Positions 4,715-22,207 of a DNA stretch of 64,000 nucleotides are shown in pieces. The notes beneath the pieces are model-generated. The model searched no databases and was not told the DNA's origin. It worked only from the letters and a program-made list of their open reading frames with translations. Every line of letters starts with the position of its first letter. Positions within the stretch are counted from its first letter, which is position 1. Source of the stretch: Serinus canaria (Eukaryota; Chordata; Aves; Passeriformes; Fringillidae); assembly GCF_022539315.1 (NCBI RefSeq), contig NC_066316.1, forward strand, positions 51,771,994-51,835,993, read 5' to 3'. A program made the translations under genes and the position numbers.

Positions 4715-5335
4715 TTGCCGTGTCTCTGAGGAATCAGAAAGTCATCATTCCCCAGGTTCCTGACATCGATGCTGTGTCTGTGGCAGAGACCGTCGCAGTG
4801 CCAGAGCTTAGGCAGTTTACACTGTGCTTTGAAGCAACCAAGGGCAACAGCGATGACAACGACGACTGGAAGGTTTTCTCCTACACTGATGCATTGTTGA
4901 GAGAGCTCTTCAGCTTCGGGAAGACCACAAAAGGCCATTTTCTGTCCATCTCAGGCACACAGTGCATCCTTAAGAATGCACTGCCCCGAAATGCAGAGTT
5001 TTTCACAGGAACCTTTCAACAGCTGTGTGTTGTATGGGACAGCTTTTGGGGCGCTATAGGTGTATATGCCAAAAGCACCTATCATGTGGTGGACTGTCCA
5101 GAGATCTTTGACAAAGTTATCCCTGGAAATGGGAGGCTGGTGCTGGGCTCTAACAGCAATGAAGTGAGCTCTCTAAATGGGGACATTTACAACTTCCGCC
5201 TCTGGAATTTCACCATGAATGCGCAAACACTGGCCAACCTCAGCTGCGATGTGAAAGGAAACATTGTAGACTGGGAAAATGAATTCTGGAGTATTCCAAC
5301 TTCAGCGCTGAAGGCAGAAAACAATTTGAGTTGTG
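4715..5335 (+). CDS. ADGRG6: ADGRG6 exon: pentraxin-like (PTX/laminin-G fold) domain
   Basis: This 621-nt exon runs from acceptor TTCCAG at 4709-4714 to donor GTGAGT at 5336 and is phase 1 at both ends. It encodes about 207 residues, beginning [14 protein letters not shown] and ending ENNLSC. The PTX-like extracellular domain follows the CUB domain in ADGRG6. A pentraxin-like core is visible as QLCVVWDS (codons around 5020-5040), with Gln in place of the usual His of the HxCxxW signature. Its probable disulfide partner is the Cys in FTLCFEATK. The strings VIPGNG, LVLGSN and [14 protein letters not shown] are diagnostic of ADGRG6. Three N-glycosylation sequons lie near the end (NFT, NLS, NLS). 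The upstream border was set by homology: human [10 protein letters not shown] follows directly on the CUB exon, so an acceptor at 4688-4689 was not chosen. Confidence 0.95.
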
Positions 5336-6668: not shown

Positions 6669-8263
6669 GTAGATAGATTTTTTTCCCACAACTTTATTCC
6701 CTGGGATGTGAGTTATCAATAGTTTCCCTGCATCAGAACATTGTTTTAGAAAAAGGATATTAGTGTTCCTGCTTTAGGCCCAGCATCCATTCAAGTAATT
6801 TAAAATGTATCTACATAAAAACCTTGTTGTTGCCTCTAAATAAGCCTATGAGGAAACTGACTCTCTAGCCAGTCTTTTTCTTTCCTTGATGTGAAATCAC
6901 CCTCTGTGATACAGGCTTTCCTGAGCCATAGTATTCCTAAAAGAAAATTCTGGGTGCAATGCCATTTCAAAGATCGTTACTAATCCCAGAGATGAAATTG
7001 TCAGAATTGTCTTCCCTTCCTCCTCCCAAGTAAAAGCCTTCTTTGTAAAATCAGCCTTCAACAGGAGAGTTGATGAGTCAGGCTATCAACCATGAATAAA
7101 CCACTGACATTGGGGAGCTGACTCTGATTAGCCTTCATTTAACAGCAGTGAAAGGATTTATACAGAAAAGAGTTTTTCACACAGCTCCAATAATGCTTCA
7201 CCAGGAAGTGGCCTGTGACTTAAAAAAAAGCAAACCAAGCATTTAGCAGTGATCTCAACATATCTTTGCCTGAACAGTGCTTACATTTTCAAGGGGTATT
7301 ATTTTTATAGTTTCTCAAACAAAGCTTTTACATGTAGATTTATGGGGCATAAAACACCGGCAAATTGCTTCAGATAATCTTTTCATAGTTTTACCTTCTA
7401 TTAGTTTATTCCTTAGACTAATGTTTTCACAGCTGTGCAGTTGTGGTGGGGTGTTTGCATAAGACTTGACAGAATTCTGGTTTTATTGCCATACCTTTGT
7501 GCAGATTGCATGTAAAGGTATGCATACACAGTCTAGGTATCCAGACTTACTTTAAAACAAGTTCCCTAGGTAATGATAGAAGTATGGCTATTGCCCACCA
7601 GTTCAGAGTTCAGTGCCAGCAAACTGAGAAACATTTAATCAACTTCTGGTTCTGATTCTGAAGCCTGCACTGGCTACAGCTCCAGCAGGATAGGATCTAC
7701 TCATTTTAAGGGCAACGTGGCCACATATCTGTCCATGCCTGCAATTGTTTGTTTTTTCATGTGCATTTCATGGGTTCCTCATTCCCAAAGGCCAAAGGAA
7801 TCCTTAATTTTGCTCTCAGATTTAACTCAGTGTGGGATGTGTCTGCCTTAGGCAGCTGGCCAGTGTTTCAGGCTAAGATAATTGCCCTCAGTGCTGTTTA
7901 TGAATAGTGGAATCAAAAAGGCTACTCCACAGGTCAGTGCATCTCATGCTGGAAAAGATGTCTCAGTGCAGTCAAAGTTCTTTTGCTGTGGGAGTGCCTC
8001 TTCCTCTCCACTGGCTATAAAGTCAAGCATGACAACCAGATATGGATGTCTGAGTTTTAGACATTTGAAGTGAGATGTGTCACACAATGTGTCTGTAATA
8101 CAGGTTCATGGGGTGACAAATCCTGTCAGCAAATCTGCTCCAGAATGGGCTCCTGTCTTCATGGGTCCACAGCTCCTACCAGGAGTTTTCTCCAGTGCCA
8201 GTTTTCCATGGAGCAACAGCCTCCTTCAGGCATCCACCTGCTCTGGCATGTGGTCCTCCACAG

Positions 8264-8495
8264 GCTGCAGGTGGATCTCTGCTCCACCATGAACCTCCAT
8301 GGCTGCAGGTGGATCTCTGCTCCACCATGGACCTCCATGGGCTGCAGGTGGATCTCTGCTCCACCATGGACCTCCATGGGCTGCAGGTGGATCTCTGCTC
8401 CACCATGGACCTCCATGGGCTGCAGGTGGATCTCTGCTCCCCCATGGACCTCCCTGGGCTGCAGGTGGATCTCTGCTCCACCATGGACCTCCCTG
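8264..8495. repeat. 39-bp tandem repeat, six copies (minisatellite)
   Basis: Six head-to-tail copies of a unit starting GCTGCAGGTGGATCTCTGCT and ending ACCTCCATGG. Spacing is 38, 39, 39, 39, 39 and 38 bp. The copies differ by only a few substitutions (CCATGAACC in copy 1, CCCCCATGG and TCCCTGG in later copies), so amplification or homogenisation is recent. Because 39 is a multiple of 3, several frames on both strands stay open across the array and give artificial Ser/Trp/His-rich peptides. I do not regard these as genes. The unit is much more GC-rich than the flanking intron. Confidence 0.92.
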
Positions 8496-9769
8496 GCTGC
8501 AGAGGCACAGCTGCTTCCCATGGTCTGCACCACGGGCTGCAGGGGAATCTGAGCTCGGGCACCTGGAGCACCTCCTGCCCCTCCTTCCTCACGGGCCCTG
8601 GTGTCTGTGGGATTTTGCTCTCACACATTCGTTCTCCTCTCTTGGCTGCAATTGCTGCTGTGCAGTAACTTTTCCCCCTTTTAAAATCCATTGTCCCAGA
8701 GACACTGCCATTGCTGCCTACAGGCTCAGCCTTGGCCAATGCATCCATCTTGGAGCTGGCTGGCATTGGCTCCATTGGACATAGGGAAAGCTTCTATGAG
8801 AGGCTTCTCAGAGAACTGCCCCTGTAACCCCCCCTTGCTGCCAAACACTTGCCATGCAAAATCAATGCAGTAGTCTTCTGACTTAAACGTTTTGTAAATT
8901 TGGATTTTATTTTTGTTTTAAGTTTCACCAAATAAAATCACAATCTTGTTTAAAATACTCAGTGAAGAAAATATGAACACCCACAGTATTTCCAGCTAAC
9001 TCCCAGGTCATCTTTTCATGTTACACAATGTGGGTGAAAGAGAGTAGTTTTTGATATTGACTGTTTAATATTAACAAATTTATTTTGGGAGTAAAAGCCT
9101 ACCACATGCAGGGGATAGTACATTCACTTAGAACATCCTTTCTGGAGTTCATAATAATTGTACCAAGAAAGTGACTTTGCCTCTATCTCTAAATCAATTT
9201 AAAAAAAAATCAGTGAAATTTAATATTTGTTGTAGATCATTTAATATTTGTTGTTTTAATTACACCCTATATTTGTTGGCAACACATGTAGGGGTATCTG
9301 TGTCATGATACAGTTTCTTTGTCAAAGCTCCACGCTTCATTTGTTCTTGCATCATAGGAAATATTTTCTTAGCTATCTTTGCAAGCTGATGGGTGGTGGC
9401 AATTTAATTTCGCGGAAGGATAGTGTGTTTCATGAGAGAACCTCATTGACTCAATATGATTCTGAAGTGGACAGAACAAAAGCCAAAAGGGCAAAACTCC
9501 TAGTGGGTTCACATTTTGCCAGAGCTCTATGGTCCCTTTGTGTTCAACACAGTGTGCAAAGGCAGCTGTATCTGCAGCTGAACCCCTGGGATACGTGGAG
9601 TGTAATTAATGCAGTTGCACCCGTTCTTTTTCTGTAGCCATTCTTAGGTGCCTTGGTTTTGTCTCCAGATCAACAAAGTGTAATGCCTGTTGTTATGAAT
9701 AATTCCGTAGAGGTACAGACTTATAACATTATCTGTTTATAAGTCATGCATACCAGCATATTAATCACA

Positions 9770-10248: not shown

Positions 10249-10317
10249 GCTCATATCTAATTCCCTCTTCTTCAATTGAACCAACCAGTTGTGCAAACCT
10301 AGGAAGCCTTTGCCAAG
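10249..10317 (+). CDS. ADGRG6: ADGRG6 exon: short linker after PTX (SYLIP...CANLGSLCQ)
   Basis: This 69-nt exon, phase 1 at both ends, runs from the AG at 10247-10248 to donor GTAAGA at 10318. Joined to the G left by the PTX exon it reads GSYLIPSSSIEPTSCANLGS then LCQ, which aligns with the human segment SYLIPLPAAELASCADLGT then LCQ. It is the first part of the extracellular linker between the PTX and SEA domains and contributes a Cys pair (CANLGSLC). Being a multiple of 3 and symmetric, it can be skipped or joined to any of the following phase-1 exons without a frameshift. Confidence 0.92.
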
Positions 10318-13340: not shown

Positions 13341-13424
13341 CTACTGTAAATGCTACTACTCCTACACCACCCACTGTCACCACTAACATGCCCGATACTA
13401 ATAGAAACGATAAGCCAAACAATG
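13341..13424 (+). CDS. ADGRG6: ADGRG6 exon: alternatively spliced Thr/Pro linker
   Basis: This 84-nt, 28-codon exon is phase 1 at both ends, from acceptor TTACCAG (ending 13340) to donor GTAAGA at 13425. The peptide ATVNATTPTPPTVTTNMPDT continues NRNDKPNN and is Thr/Pro-rich with one NAT sequon, like an O-glycosylated stalk. It corresponds to the 28-residue segment present in some human ADGRG6 isoforms and absent from others. In zebrafish a splice insert at this point is reported to alter ectodomain conformation and signalling. The symmetric phase is what a skippable cassette needs. Alternative use in this species is inferred by homology. Confidence 0.88.
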
Positions 13425-14873: not shown

Positions 14874-17800
14874 ACCTGCAGGAATTCAGACTTCCTGCTA
14901 CAGTTATCTTCAGAATGAAGAGAAATTCACCTGAATTTTCCCATTCACGACCACAGAGGCAGCAAGAATCTAAGATAGAAGGGATCAAAACAATAGGAAT
15001 TATCTCAAGCCCAATTATTTGGCCAGTGAAGCAAAGGCCCCTGCATTTCAGTAAAAATTCATCAGATGATAACCCAGAGAGAAAAAACGCATACAGCCTC
15101 TTCCTTCCAACTTTGTCCACACCAGCTTCTTCTGAGGAGAATGGCAACAAAACCTCATCTGCTTATACAGAAAACACCAAGCTAGATTATACTGTAATGG
15201 ATCAGTTGCCAATTGAAAATATTTTGAATTATTCTAGAAGTCCATTCCGTGGAACTTCTGGTGCAGCAGATGCAGTTACAGAGCCCCCTGTGAGTGCAGC
15301 AGTTCCTCTTCTTCACAGCAGAAATCCCAGCGCAAAGCTAGCAAGGACTTTGGCAAGTAGGCTCCATCTTTCTGACTCTGAGCCATCGTTCCACTCTCCT
15401 GTTAGCAGCAGCAGCAGCAGCAGCACTGTTTATGAACATGAAGAAGAAACTCCGTGGATTTCAGCCTCCAACAGCGACACAACCAATTTCGTGCATACAA
15501 GCAATGTCTTGGAGCCTGTGAACTGGTGGAATGAGCCTGTATTTCACCATCGTATCACCTCTGATATTCAAGAGGACGGACATCGTTTTCTTTCTAGCTT
15601 TTCTGTACCACCTACAGATGAGAAGCCACTATTCCAAAAAAGTAGGTTAGATTTACTAGACTTGGCACCTGACAATTTTTACCTGGAAATGGTAGAAGGC
15701 GATGCTGACAGGAAAATGTTTTCTACACTATCAGCAAACAGTGAATTTCAGTTTAGAAAATCTGTGCACATTAAGGACCGTCATTCAGCAGGCATTACAA
15801 ATTTAACCTCTGTGGAAATTCTACATGCAAAACCAACAAGTTTTTTTCAGATCATGAAAAAATCATACACAAAATTTATGCATGGCAGCCAACTGACAAA
15901 TTCAGTCCAAGGACACAGTAAAGAACTATTAACATTTTCATCATTTCTGGTAGAACCAGGCTGGACAAGCTCAGCATTTAAGCATGTTGTAACAACCCTG
16001 CCTGTTTATCAACAGCTGTTGACTGACACATATTTGAAAAGTGACAGCATATTTATATCTAGTAGTAATTACTGGTCTCATTATTTACAGCATTCATTAT
16101 ACTTTGAAAATCCAAGTGAGACCCTTAGAAATGGAGCACTGGAGAACAATTTGGATGCATTTCATGGTAGTAATGAAAATGAAGAATCATCTTTTTCCAT
16201 ATTAGAGCCAGAGAACATGAATCCAGTTGCTGACTCCTGGGATTCAGATTACTTGGATTTTCCAACAAAATATGTAGATATATCCCCCTCTTTAAGAGCA
16301 AGTTTCTGGACTGTTTCCCATCATTTGAAAGAAGCATCTCAAGTGTTTTCTGGGGAGCCATCGGAAAATTTCTGGCTCTCATTTAATAAACTGCTTTCTT
16401 CCCCAACAGAGAGATTGAGGTCCATTAGTTTATATGCTAACTCTGACGGTATCTCTGAACAAACATCTGCCATTAGATTTGTAGGTCACAGAGCTGAAGA
16501 AAGTAATTTTTCTAGTCATGTATCAACTTTGGAAACACAAATCTTTAGTTCATTAATTCCAGGCATTTCAAAGAGAATTTCAGAAAGTACTGGCTGGTCA
16601 ATATCACAATTGCAGTCAACAATCAACTTTGCAAACCTAACTGTGACTTCCCACAGTGAATTTTACTTTGATTTTCCTTCTCCTTCCCTGGAAGCACCTT
16701 CCATTCAGTCCTCTGTATGGGCACAGGGAAGCCCTTTTGATCAGGTGCTTGAAAACTCTGCAGATAGTTTGCACATGCAAATTCAAACTGACATAGTAAG
16801 TGATCAAATTGACATGGCTTTCCTAAGCAATAGGCATCAGCCTGTTTCTGTCTTTCCAACACACTCAGGAACTCAGCCTTCTGGTTCAAGGGATAGCCGT
16901 GCTCCTTTCTTGATCAGAACATCTGGGGCTCAGGTCACTTGGACAGTTCAGAGTTTGACAAGCAGTGCAAGAACACACAAAACACAGCAGTCTCAAAGTC
17001 TTCTGGAGAATGATACTATAACAAATACCATTGATAAACCAAGAAGTAAAGTTCAGAAAGATGCAGGTATTTTTTTAAAAAGCATCAGTTCAACAAGTTC
17101 TGACTTTTTTCCAGTGTCTTTGGAATTGCAGCAATTTCTTCATTCAGAGTCTGAATTCAGAGACAGCGTAACTCCTAACACCTATTCTACACCTCCACTC
17201 CCACAAAGTTTTCAGAATCATCTTGACTCAATTACTCCAAGCTTGCTCCCTCAGTGGGACGTAGAAGAGTTAAACTTGCCAACAACAGAAGCACCAAGAA
17301 ATTATCTAACTGTTTTAGGGCAAGACTCCATTGAAAATCAAGCGGACGGTCCAAGATACTCTCTCTGGGCAGTGGAACAAGAAATCATTGACAGTGATAA
17401 AGGCACAAGGGATTTTGCTGTTCTGACATCAACAAACATACCGAGGCTTTCTGAATGGAATTCAGAGGGGGAGGTGTACAGACCCTTCAGCAGGAGCAGA
17501 GAAGCAATATCTACCATTACTGCTAATGCCTTGCATTTTGAAAATGCTGATTATGGACGCCTTGCAAATCTCTCTTCTGTCCTGGAATCATCAAGAACTG
17601 CAATAATGAGTGATGTGGTACCTTTGCCATCTTCTTACATCAGAGTTTTTATTCAGCACAAAGAGACCATCTTGACAGGCACTCTGACAACTGCTGCAGC
17701 AGCCATCCATCACTCTCTCGTGCAGATCCAAACATCACTTTCTTCTGTGACATACCACGAGTCATCAGTTTCAGCCCATGTTTATTCCTTGGCCCATTTA

Positions 17801-17936
17801 CCATCTGGGACAAGCCAAAACAGCACCTCTTACCCACCACTGAAACAACTTTCTAGCTCTGCTGCAGTCCTTTTGCCTTGTTTGTGTGACTTCTTCACTG
17901 AGCTGGGCTGCCTGTGTCGAGCTGAGTTCCACTACA
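14874..17936 (+). CDS. ADGRG6: ADGRG6 giant exon: 1,021-codon Ser-rich extracellular segment
   Basis: A single 3,063-nt block without a stop, in the correct orientation. Acceptor CACACAG ends at 14873 and donor GTATGT lies at 17937-17942. With these borders it is phase 1 at both ends and a multiple of 3, so it fits between the linker exons and the SEA exon. Chance cannot plausibly give 1,021 open codons in this AT-rich DNA. The peptide is hydrophilic and Ser/Thr-rich, with no transmembrane segment, no obvious tandem repeat and nine N-glycosylation sequons (NSS, NKT, NYS, NLT, NFS, NLT, NDT, NLS, NST). A CAG/AGC run at about 15404-15424 gives a poly-Ser tract. There is no cysteine for about the first 990 residues. 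Then four occur close together in LPCLCDFFTELGCLCRAEFH at the end. The likely role is a long, glycosylated, mostly disordered spacer between PTX and SEA. I know no such segment in mammalian or fish ADGRG6. The paralogue ADGRG4 has a huge Ser/Thr-rich region in the comparable position, so shared ancestry is possible. Expression is not shown by sequence alone. Confidence 0.82.
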
Positions 17937-20557
17937 GTATGTCAAGCTGCTAAGTTAGATGTAGAAAAAAACCCAGATCATCTTATCTGTTAGATATTCA
18001 GTTTGTAGACTGAATGTAGAAGTAGCTCTCTTTCATCCTTTAGATGTAGGACCATTTGGCATAGGAAAATGTTTTGGAATAATAATATGATTACAGTAGA
18101 AGGGAATTTGTAACATATTAGTGATAGTAAATGTCATTAATGTGTGATTTCTCATATTTGTATACTTCTCTAAGACAGCTCTCATGAGACTGTGAGGATA
18201 ATTTACTGGTTTCCATGTATTTTATATGATTAAATGACAATTTATTGTTTGAGAGTATATTAATGTTTTTTACTGACGTATTTTTTGAGGATTTCACTTT
18301 CAAAAATAGAAGATTTTTCAAAACTCAGTGTTTGAATAATAAAACTCAGTGTATCCCTAACAGAATTTTTAAAAATACTCACATTTGATTCATCATTCTA
18401 TTTTTGTAGTTGGTGGTGGGTGTAGGGAGCATTGTTTTCAAGGCTATTTTTTCCTTTTTTTCCAGATTTTCTCTGGCTACTTTTCACCAGTTTTATGAAC
18501 TTTTTTTTCTTTTCATTCAGCATTTTGAGATGGGATTTCAACTGTTTAATTTGAAGAGGGATAAATAAGTTTTCATTTTTACTATCTACTTTACAGTCTC
18601 CTGAGAGTATTTTAAAATGCAGATTAGTTCTAGTTCTTTTATTTTGCCTCATTAAAACATGCTTTGGGTCAACATCTGATGGAGATCTTGAATCTGTTGC
18701 CTAGTTTGTAGTTACTGTGTATGATTTTTAAAATGCTTTGCACATTCCTATATTAAAGTGATTTTGTCACTATACATAATTATCTAAGTAAGGTTATAAC
18801 TAGATATATAATTACATATGAGTTTTTGAGTATCTAATGCACACTTTCTGTATGTGTGTATCTGCATGGCACATATAAAAAGTACATTGCAGATTTAAAA
18901 TTGAATATGTGTTTATACAGAGATATAAACACACAAAGAACATCTAGGTATTGCCAGTGTTTTCAATTTGCCCAAAGTCCAAATTTCTACTTCCAAAGAC
19001 ATAATTTTTTAAAAAATGATCACAGTAATAATAAACTAAAGCACATATTCAGATTAAACTATGCACATAATTTGTGTGCCTCCTCAGGAGAGTTAAAAAA
19101 GACAGTCAAGTAAAACAAAGTTCCTTCTGCTCATATCAAAAATTAAATCATAGCTAACCAAGGAAAGTGTCTAGTAAACCATCTTCTTTACTGTTTTATC
19201 GTTAAGGATTTTTTTACCAATCTTAATATTCATATAATTAATTCCATATTGTAAAGAAAGAACAATTCTCCAACCATTTCATGAATAGTAGCCAATTGGA
19301 AAATACTGACATCAAAATTTTTTCCAGGTGCTTTTGCTTCAAGCTCTTGTACAGTAATTATCTATGAAGTTGTAAAATTATGACATTTGCTCCACTTAGA
19401 ATAAAAGGTCTTTTTGGAATCTAAATAAAGATTCCAAAAGATGGAGCAGTTCCTTTCCAATCTGAGACAGAAAGGGATTTCTGTATAATTATTGTCATGT
19501 CCTGCTCCGTCCTATATAGTGTCTCTGTAAGATTTACATAAGATTAAATAAATGCATGTATCTGTGAACAAGACCCACAGCCTTGGTAACAGCCCCAAAC
19601 CAAGCAATGCCACAAATGCACATAAATGCAAGTGAATTGATCCAGAAGTTCTTAAACCTCCCCCACATCCTGGGAACTTTCACACAACTAGAGCTTACAG
19701 AATGTTTAGTAGCTTAATGAAAAAAAAATAGGCTTGTGGAAAGTACAGACTTTTAACACAGAGCATAACTATGAAATGAATTGATGTTATTTATTAGATG
19801 TGAAATCTTGTAATGCTGCCTACCCACTCATGAGCTTAAAGAGAATTTATATTTACACAGTGCCATTTCAAAACAGTTTTCTGAATATAAAATTGCACCA
19901 AGCCAAGTGTTACACATTTTGTTACTGAAAGATGGTTTGTTCAGCTGCCAGTTTTGTAAAGCTAATATGGGTTCTTCTACTGTCTGGCCATTGCCAGGCC
20001 TCAGAGCAAGCCTGTACTTTGGAAACAAGAGCTCTATATCCCTTCTCACACCTAATTCTGTCCTCAGTTACCTTGCTACATTTAATTGATGAGCTTTATT
20101 TGCTCTCACAATATTTAAACTCCAGTCTCCAGTGGTTCAATTCTGGAACATATAGCAATATTCTAATATGCCTAGGATCAGAATTTATCTGTGTTTACAG
20201 ACTTCATTAATTATAATAGTTTTAAATATTCCTGACACTGTCATGAACTTGACATTAGAGGCATATCCAAAATACTATTTATACGTGTGTTGTCTGTGAG
20301 TTTCCATGTCACATTTCAAGTGCCTCTGAAAATATGGAAGGGGAGGGAATTCTTGTCAAAATCAACAGAACTAGTGAGAATGGGCCCAAACCTGCAGGGG
20401 TAATTTATTTCAGAGATTAAATGCCATCAAGAGTGTGAGGTGGCCTTGTAACTGGGGTTAAGCACAATTTTTATATTAATCATGAAGCTAAAATCTCATT
20501 ATTAAAAAGCTAAATTTGCTCAGTTTCTAACATTATGATGCCATTTTTAATGGACAG
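17937..20557 (+). other. ADGRG6: intron between the giant exon and the first SEA exon
   Basis: About 2.6 kb of AT-rich sequence. The reading frame of the giant exon would stop at 17951-17953 if the donor at 17937 were not used. No transposon, RNA gene or additional exon is recognisable. It ends in TTTTTAATGGACAG. Confidence 0.8.
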
Positions 20558-20643
20558 GTGGGCTGTTCTACAGGATATCTATAGTTGTCTCTAGTTCCAA
20601 CCCCAACTCGGTGTCAAAAGTACATGATGTCGTTGCAGAATGG
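20558..20643 (+). CDS. ADGRG6: ADGRG6 exon: start of SEA domain
   Basis: This 86-nt exon enters in phase 1, leaves in phase 0 and has a strong donor GTAAGT at 20644. It reads GGLFYRISIVVSSSNPNSVS then KVHDVVAEW, aligned with human DGIIYRISVVIQ...KVAEW. The competing acceptor CTACAG (ending 20573) would create an immediate in-frame TAG after phase-1 joining, so ACAG ending at 20557 was chosen. It is the first strand/helix segment of the SEA domain. Confidence 0.9.
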
Positions 20644-22073: not shown

Positions 22074-22153
22074 GTAAATTAAGGAGGAAGATATTTATGC
22101 TGTATTCCTTTGGAGAATTAATCCACCCTAATAATTGTCTGTTTCTTCCATAG

Positions 22154-22207
22154 CATCCACCCTGCCTCTGTAAGAGAGGGAGCCAGACAAAAAAGAAGCA
22201 TTAAAAG
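22154..22207 (+). CDS. ADGRG6: ADGRG6 exon: SEA domain with furin-type site RQKR
   Basis: This 54-nt exon, phase 2 at both ends, lies only 80 nt after the previous one. It reads SIHPASVREGARQKRSIK. RQKR at 22185-22196 followed by Ser is a consensus furin (R-x-K/R-R) site. ADGRG6 is known to be cleaved by a furin-like protease within the SEA region. The human counterpart is KIKVKR then SL, so the position is conserved and the bird motif is a better consensus. The adjoining introns are the 80-bp one at 22074-22153 and the largest one, downstream. Confidence 0.93.

What the first reader, a model, noticed from the sequence alone, without database searches (positions are those of the whole stretch)
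14874..17936. A 1,021-codon giant exon inside ADGRG6, between PTX and SEA
A 3,063-nt stop-free block sits exactly in the linker where ADGRG6 is alternatively spliced. It has AG/GT borders, phase 1 on both sides and a length divisible by 3, so including it keeps the receptor in frame and roughly doubles the in-window protein (2,066 versus 1,045 residues). Mammalian and zebrafish ADGRG6 proteins as I know them, about 1,200 residues, lack it. If expressed, it would give a receptor with a very long glycosylated stalk separating the ligand-binding CUB/PTX part from SEA/GAIN. That would change reach, shielding and force transmission onto the tethered agonist.
Basis: partly seen in the sequence, partly recalled or inferred. 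Interest (0 to 1): 0.93.

Follow-up and report, generated by a model that had tools for sequence, protein, structure and literature searches.

The report
Giant cleavable exon in bird ADGRG6
The receptor gene ADGRG6 of this bird contains a 3,063-base exon that other birds, lizards, snakes and frogs share; using it would add about 1,020 residues, predicted to be unfolded, to the receptor's outer part, and because they begin with a predicted furin protease site it would likely cut the receptor's ligand-binding head loose.

Summary
Confirmed: 14874-17936 is a 3,063-nt, stop-free, phase-1/phase-1 block between ADGRG6 exon 6 and exon 7, far beyond chance (1,033 open codons; longest of 200 simulations 282) and found once in its genome. 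It is a conserved coding exon: three protein searches returned 70 proteins that carry all or part of it, from 27 named birds, seven named squamates, four named frogs and unnamed sources. So it is not a bird novelty. No mammal or fish appeared, but the searches are not exhaustive. The middle evolves fast and is predicted disordered; both ends are conserved. The start holds a furin-type site (R-x-K/R-R; 42 of 42 sequences that cover it) and a motif (SKI-x-G...IGIISTPI-x-WPVKQRP) with no significant match in Pfam, PDB sequences or the rest of this genome. The end holds a cysteine cluster. Predicted database isoforms use the exon whole, shortened at an internal donor (four bird species), with exon 6 skipped (two species), or as last coding exon of a protein without transmembrane part (eight species). 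Best reading: including it likely lets furin sever the CUB-PTX head from SEA/GAIN/7TM. RNA, cleavage and function are untested. Eight searches of open-licence papers listed no description of it.

The parts
4715..5335 (+). ADGRG6 exon 4, PTX domain (621 nt)
   Evidence: splice borders and frame; Corvus ADGRG6 matches here at 93%
10249..10317 (+). exon 5 with the CANLGSLC loop, phase-1 donor
   Evidence: Corvus 100%
13341..13424 (+). exon 6, 84 nt, counterpart of the human 84-nt (28-residue) alternative exon
   Evidence: human sizes from passages of PMC6954182 and PMC9105363
14874..17936 (+). giant exon, 3,063 nt, phase 1/1, 1,021 codons
   Evidence: 70 related proteins
14912..14923 (+). predicted furin site RMKR (residues 13-16 of the exon), the only R-x-[KR]-R in the exon
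   Evidence: R-x-[KR]-R in 42 of 42 sequences covering the site
14960..15040 (+). conserved motif, residues 29-55; 17 of 27 positions invariant and 3 nearly so in ten aligned tetrapod sequences
   Evidence: no significant match elsewhere
15641..15643 (+). internal donor: last base 15641 then GT; would keep 256 codons of the giant exon and join exon 7 in frame
   Evidence: same junction in predicted isoforms of Agelaius, Cuculus, Columba livia, Falco cherrug; site in window
17879..17917 (+). cysteine cluster (exon residues 1002, 1004, 1012, 1014), the only four cysteines of the exon
   Evidence: three cysteines invariant in 12 aligned sequences
17937..17953 (+). donor gtatgt and, if not spliced, an in-frame tail of a few residues and stop, as in the predicted soluble isoforms
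20558..20643 (+). exon 7, start of SEA
   Evidence: Corvus match
22152..22205 (+). SEA exon stretch with a second furin-type site, RQKR
   Evidence: furin site in SEA of many mammals and birds per PMC6954182 passages

Best explanation
This is a conserved coding exon of ADGRG6, shared by birds, squamates and frogs, that would place about 1,020 residues predicted to be disordered between the PTX and SEA domains and would likely make the receptor furin-cleavable at the exon's first residues, so that the CUB-PTX head is released or held only by weak contacts. Shown by calls: exon borders and frame, conservation of the exon, of its furin-type site, of the motif and of the cysteine cluster, and predicted database isoforms of several kinds. 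Inferred: that splicing works as a switch. Skipping the exon gives the compact, closed receptor known from mammals and fish. Including it puts the site RMKR|NS just after exon 6; furin in the secretory pathway would cut there and again in SEA (RQKR|S), whose halves are expected to stay together. That would leave a receptor tipped by a 1,000-residue disordered bristle starting close to the conserved motif, plus a diffusible CUB-PTX fragment. If the exon's donor is not used, the exon ends the protein and gives a secreted CUB-PTX-stalk form. The motif is probably a binding site for an unknown partner (guess).
For: Open frame beyond chance with codon-position bias; one frame with and without it. 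70 proteins with all or part of it, in ADGRG6 where flanking domains are present. R-x-[KR]-R in 42 of 42 sequences that cover the site, the window included; 21 further sequences start inside the site and show M-[KR]-R. Conserved ends against a fast middle; motif 17 of 27 positions invariant. No confident fold: mean pLDDT 27, no residue at 50 or more. Nine of 70 proteins, from eight species, hold CUB and PTX and end within 20 residues past the exon. Furin cuts human and mouse GPR126 in SEA, cut SEA domains of other proteins stay together until pulled, and exon 6 opens the ectodomain and raises cAMP signalling (PMC6954182 passages). The N-terminal fragment is reported to act in trans (PMC11475505 passages).
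Against: No RNA or protein data were seen; the isoforms are automatic annotations. Furin cleavage is predicted from a motif only. The 42 sequences include close relatives and are not independent. The middle of the exon is not above shuffled background between Corvus and Ascaphus, X. laevis or cobra, so common descent of the middle is shown only within birds, geckos and lizards and the unnamed P0048. Low pLDDT can also come from a weak alignment. Polyadenylation signals after the exon are not telling: 5 AATAAA in 2.6 kb against 72 in the window. The internal donor's residues are in 40 of 66 proteins and lacking in squamates and frogs. CUB-HormR contacts could keep a cut head in place.
Confidence: 0.55

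Rival explanations
1. Uncut extension: the exon makes a long glycosylated spacer that stays in one piece, changes reach and shielding, and passes or damps force between CUB-PTX and GAIN.
For: Position and length; ADGRG4 has a long stalk in the same place for which a force-sensing role was proposed (PMC10687090 passages); 9 N-glycosylation sequons and 24% Ser+Thr in the window.
Against: Furin-type site in 42 of 42 sequences covering it; fold-free middle with no detectable conservation between birds and frogs argues for bulk rather than shape, which does not exclude a spacer.
Confidence: 0.25
2. Secreted form first: the exon mainly serves as an alternative last coding exon that makes a soluble CUB-PTX-stalk decoy or ligand, and joining it to exon 7 is minor.
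For: Nine predicted proteins of eight species, birds, squamates and X. tropicalis, end within 20 residues past the exon with CUB and PTX and no transmembrane part.
Against: Many predicted proteins splice the exon to exon 7 in the same phase, its donor is intact in the window, and no excess of polyadenylation signals is seen downstream.
Confidence: 0.13
3. Sequence homologue of the ADGRG4 (GPR112) mucin-like stalk, an ancestral part of the ADGRG2/4/6 group.
For: Same place between PTX and SEA; PTX domains of ADGRG4 and ADGRG6 cluster together (PMC10687090 passages).
Against: Profiles of the exon and of its motif find nothing significant in the likely ADGRG4 locus of this genome (best E 1.7 and 2.6; stalk alone -0.3 bits).
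Confidence: 0.05
4. Chance open frame, pseudo-exon or retrocopy without coding role.
For: No transcript data were seen; no known domain.
Against: Chance excluded; only the self match in the genome; open and conserved from emu to finches and recognisable in squamates and frogs.
Confidence: 0.01

Closest known systems
ADGRG6/GPR126 alternative exon 6 (human 28, zebrafish 23 residues; PMC6954182 passages)
   Same: Same gene, same PTX-SEA linker, symmetric phase-1 cassette, Ser/Thr-containing; would open the ectodomain.
   Different: About 36 times longer, separate neighbouring exon, own furin-type site, conserved motif and cysteine cluster; can end the protein.
ADGRG4/GPR112 mucin-like stalk (human residues 279-2244; PMC10687090 passages)
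   Same: Long, unfolded segment between PTX and SEA of a related receptor.
   Different: No detectable sequence homology; less Ser/Thr/Pro; furin-type site at its start. In this bird the likely ADGRG4 has a longest stalk-like open frame of only 245 codons.
Furin cut in the SEA domain of human and mouse GPR126 (PMC6954182 passages)
   Same: Same protease type and consensus, same ectodomain.
   Different: SEA halves are expected to hold together; the new site lies in a predicted unfolded linker, where a cut would separate the parts.

Membership tests
ADGRG6 (adhesion GPCR G6) | CUB then PTX at the N-terminus | tested here: met
   CUB exon just upstream in L002 (84% to Corvus) and PTX exon in window (93%); Pfam CUB and Pentaxin on the Corvus protein
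ADGRG6 (adhesion GPCR G6) | SEA_Gpr126, GPS and 7TM in order downstream | tested here: met
   Corvus protein carries PF25307, PF01825, PF00002 and maps exon by exon onto 20558-60885
ADGRG4-type mucin-like stalk | place between PTX and SEA | tested here: met
ADGRG4-type mucin-like stalk | sequence homology with the ADGRG4 stalk | tested here: not met
   nothing significant in the likely ADGRG4 locus of this genome; human ADGRG4 was not compared
ADGRG4-type mucin-like stalk | mucin-like composition | tested here: inconclusive
   S+T 24%, P 6%, 9 sequons; no O-glycosylation predictor was run
furin substrates | R-x-[KR]-R in an accessible stretch | tested here: met
   RMKR at 14912-14923, 42 of 42 sequences covering the site; predicted unfolded
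furin substrates | cleavage in cells | not testable with these tools
   needs expression with and without furin
retrocopy of another gene | a parent gene elsewhere in the genome or a known protein relative | tested here: not met
   only the self match in the genome; no Pfam match above cut-off and no PDB match

The most novel reading that the evidence does not exclude
In non-mammalian tetrapods ADGRG6 is one gene for three extracellular products: through one exon it can release a diffusible CUB-PTX ligand, expose a 1,000-residue disordered bristle on the receptor headed by a conserved motif with its own unknown partner, or secrete the whole assembly. Mammals lost this layer, so mouse and zebrafish work on myelination, ear and skeleton describes only the reduced receptor.
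Probability: 0.3. Interest if true: 0.86.

Novelty: new variant of a known kind. Interest (0 to 1): 0.72.

Why it matters
ADGRG6 controls Schwann-cell myelination and inner-ear formation, and human variants are tied to skeletal disease; how its ectodomain passes force and ligand binding to the tethered agonist is open. A conserved exon that nearly doubles the protein and puts a predicted protease site between head and receptor is a natural experiment on that question, testable in chicken, lizard or Xenopus. It also warns that mouse and zebrafish isoforms may not represent other vertebrates. A strongly conserved motif in an otherwise fast-evolving, predicted unfolded segment points to an unknown binding partner.

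Tried and rejected
Chance open frame: rejected. Retrocopy or repeat: rejected (only one 23-nt repeat pair in and around the exon). Homology with the ADGRG4 stalk: sought in the likely ADGRG4 locus of this genome, not found; its identity rests on a weak PTX match (22%, E 4.7e-7) and a 7TM exon at 72% in the same locus, no database label; phase comparison left open because its stalk acceptor is ambiguous. DNA of relatives for dN/dS: scans of viral contigs (28 pattern matches, none confirmed) and genome contigs (82, none confirmed) gave none. Structure: no confident residue, so no fold search was run. Motif resemblance to an FHL1 peptide (4j2x_B) is not significant (E 0.27). Common descent of the exon's middle between birds and frogs or cobra: not above 30 shuffles each. 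Absence in mammals and fish is not shown: the candidate step samples (one search listed only 5 of the bird proteins). NCBIfam: no match.

Full report
WHAT IS THERE. The window is the PTX-to-tail part of ADGRG6 in a bird, probably a finch-like songbird (nearest giant-exon protein: Haemorhous mexicanus, 93%). The CUB exon lies just upstream (L002). Exon 4 (4715-5335), exon 5 (10249-10317), exon 6 (13341-13424), the giant exon (14874-17936) and exon 7 (20558-20643) join in one frame, with or without the giant exon. The giant block is open for 1,033 codons; the next longest open stretch in the window is 236, and 200 order-2 simulations reached at most 282. Its codon-position chi2 (82) exceeds all 37 control stretches (maximum 20). 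In the genome it matches only itself, and the motif at its start has no other significant match there.

WHO HAS IT. Three protein searches (52 proteins; 23; 28; overlapping) gave 70 distinct proteins besides the window's own (P0002-P0071), among them partial models and unnamed open frames. Named are 27 bird species (songbirds, Acanthisitta, owls, falcons, parrots, a shorebird, fulmar, honeyguide, cuckoo, pigeons, duck, galliforms, emu), seven squamates (Paroedura, Pogona, Podarcis, Zootoca, Anolis, Naja, Ahaetulla) and four frogs (Ascaphus, Xenopus tropicalis, X. laevis, Lithobates). Where flanking domains are present they are those of ADGRG6. No mammal or fish is in the three lists, but the search step is not exhaustive, so loss in mammals is likely rather than shown; print gives human and zebrafish only the short exon 6 here (PMC6954182 passages). 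No turtle or crocodile is named; the unnamed P0048 lies between birds and squamates.

ANATOMY OF THE EXON. The ends are conserved, the middle is not. Corvus against Ascaphus: first 75 residues 51%, middle 23%, cysteine end 52%, against CUB 65%, PTX 56%, SEA 53%, 7TM part 84%. The middle is not above shuffled background for Ascaphus (23.1 against 21.9, s.d. 1.6), X. laevis (23.9 against 22.3) or Naja (24.4 against 22.5); it is for Podarcis (27.5 against 22.8, shuffle maximum 27.0), Paroedura (28.0 against 22.8, maximum 26.3) and P0048 (36.5 against 22.6, maximum 25.6; 30 shuffles each). The start holds R-x-[KR]-R in 42 of 42 sequences that cover it, the window's own included; 21 more begin inside the site. 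Thirteen residues after the expected cut a 27-residue motif begins, 17 positions invariant and 3 nearly so in ten aligned tetrapod sequences, without a significant Pfam, PDB or own-genome match. The end holds the exon's only four cysteines; three are invariant in 12 aligned sequences. AlphaFold2 with 34 sequences gave mean pLDDT 27 and no residue at 50 or more.

HOW IT IS USED, AS FAR AS PREDICTED MODELS TELL. Whole exon spliced to exon 7: many species. Exon 6 skipped before it: Bubo bubo P0015 and Anolis P0062. Internal donor: models of Agelaius, Cuculus, Columba livia and Falco cherrug leave the exon at the same place and join exon 7; the window has the GT at 15642 and using it keeps 256 codons. 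The residues around that donor (QKS or KKS) are in 40 of 66 proteins examined and missing in squamates and frogs, so this variant looks bird-specific. Terminal use: nine proteins of eight species (Camarhynchus, Guaruba, Oxyura, Numida, Paroedura, Pogona, Ahaetulla, X. tropicalis) have CUB and PTX and end within 20 residues past the exon. Two further partial models (P0013, P0022) stop at the exon end and are not counted. These are automatic annotations; that such models usually rest on RNA reads is my recollection, not a result here.

MECHANISM. Leon et al. (PMC6954182 passages) report that the zebrafish ectodomain is closed, that exon 6 opens it and raises cAMP signalling, and that human GPR126 is cut by furin in SEA. 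Against that background a 1,000-residue insert would be expected to undo the closed form. The conserved furin-type site makes a stronger prediction: the head is cut off just after exon 6, leaving a long disordered segment as the new tip, while SEA and GAIN stay. PMC11475505 (passages) reviews evidence that the N-terminal fragment acts in trans; the giant exon would be a regulated way to make one. Shown: exon, conservation, site, motif. Inferred: use in life, cleavage, release, signalling effect, partner of the motif.

COMPARISON. By place it resembles the ADGRG4 stalk (PMC10687090 passages), but homology was tested against the likely ADGRG4 locus of this bird and not met, so I do not file it there. 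In this bird that locus has a longest stalk-like open frame of 245 codons, while ADGRG6 has 1,021: the reverse of the human pair.

NOVELTY. Eight searches of open-licence full texts listed no paper whose title or abstract start describes this exon; the passages I read of PMC13197933, PMC6954182, PMC6667449, PMC11475505, PMC10687090 and PMC9105363 do not mention it. No paper was read whole; subscription papers and supplements were not seen. The predicted proteins are already in public databases, so what would be new is the recognition, the conserved site and motif, and the mechanism.

Noticed in passing
8251-8502: A 39-nt minisatellite (6.5 copies) in the intron after exon 4 is open in several frames. 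A Hirundo rustica ADGRG6 entry (P0044) begins with what looks like its translation (MDLHGLQVDPCS), probably a mis-annotation.
   Followed up: partly
P0066, P0067 (Xenopus tropicalis): These predicted ADGRG6 forms carry a further stretch of roughly 900 Ser/Thr-rich residues with repeats before the giant-exon motif.
   Followed up: no
P0069 (Xenopus laevis): Labelled adhesion GPCR G4, but it carries the SEA_Gpr126 Pfam accession and the giant-exon motif, so it is ADGRG6.
   Followed up: partly
L009-L013 (G000:C1:99050000-99099999, minus strand): Likely ADGRG4 of this bird: PTX exon, Ser/Thr/Pro-rich stalk frame of 245 codons and 7TM exons; much shorter stalk than described for human.
   Followed up: partly
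14999-15040: The motif's IGIISTPI-WPVK part gave one weak PDB sequence match, an FHL1 peptide (4j2x_B, E 0.27); not significant and dropped.
   Followed up: partly
P0002, P0013, P0022, P0023, P0038: In house finch, rifleman, kea, fulmar and emu the giant-exon part is listed as a separate uncharacterized protein.
   Followed up: no
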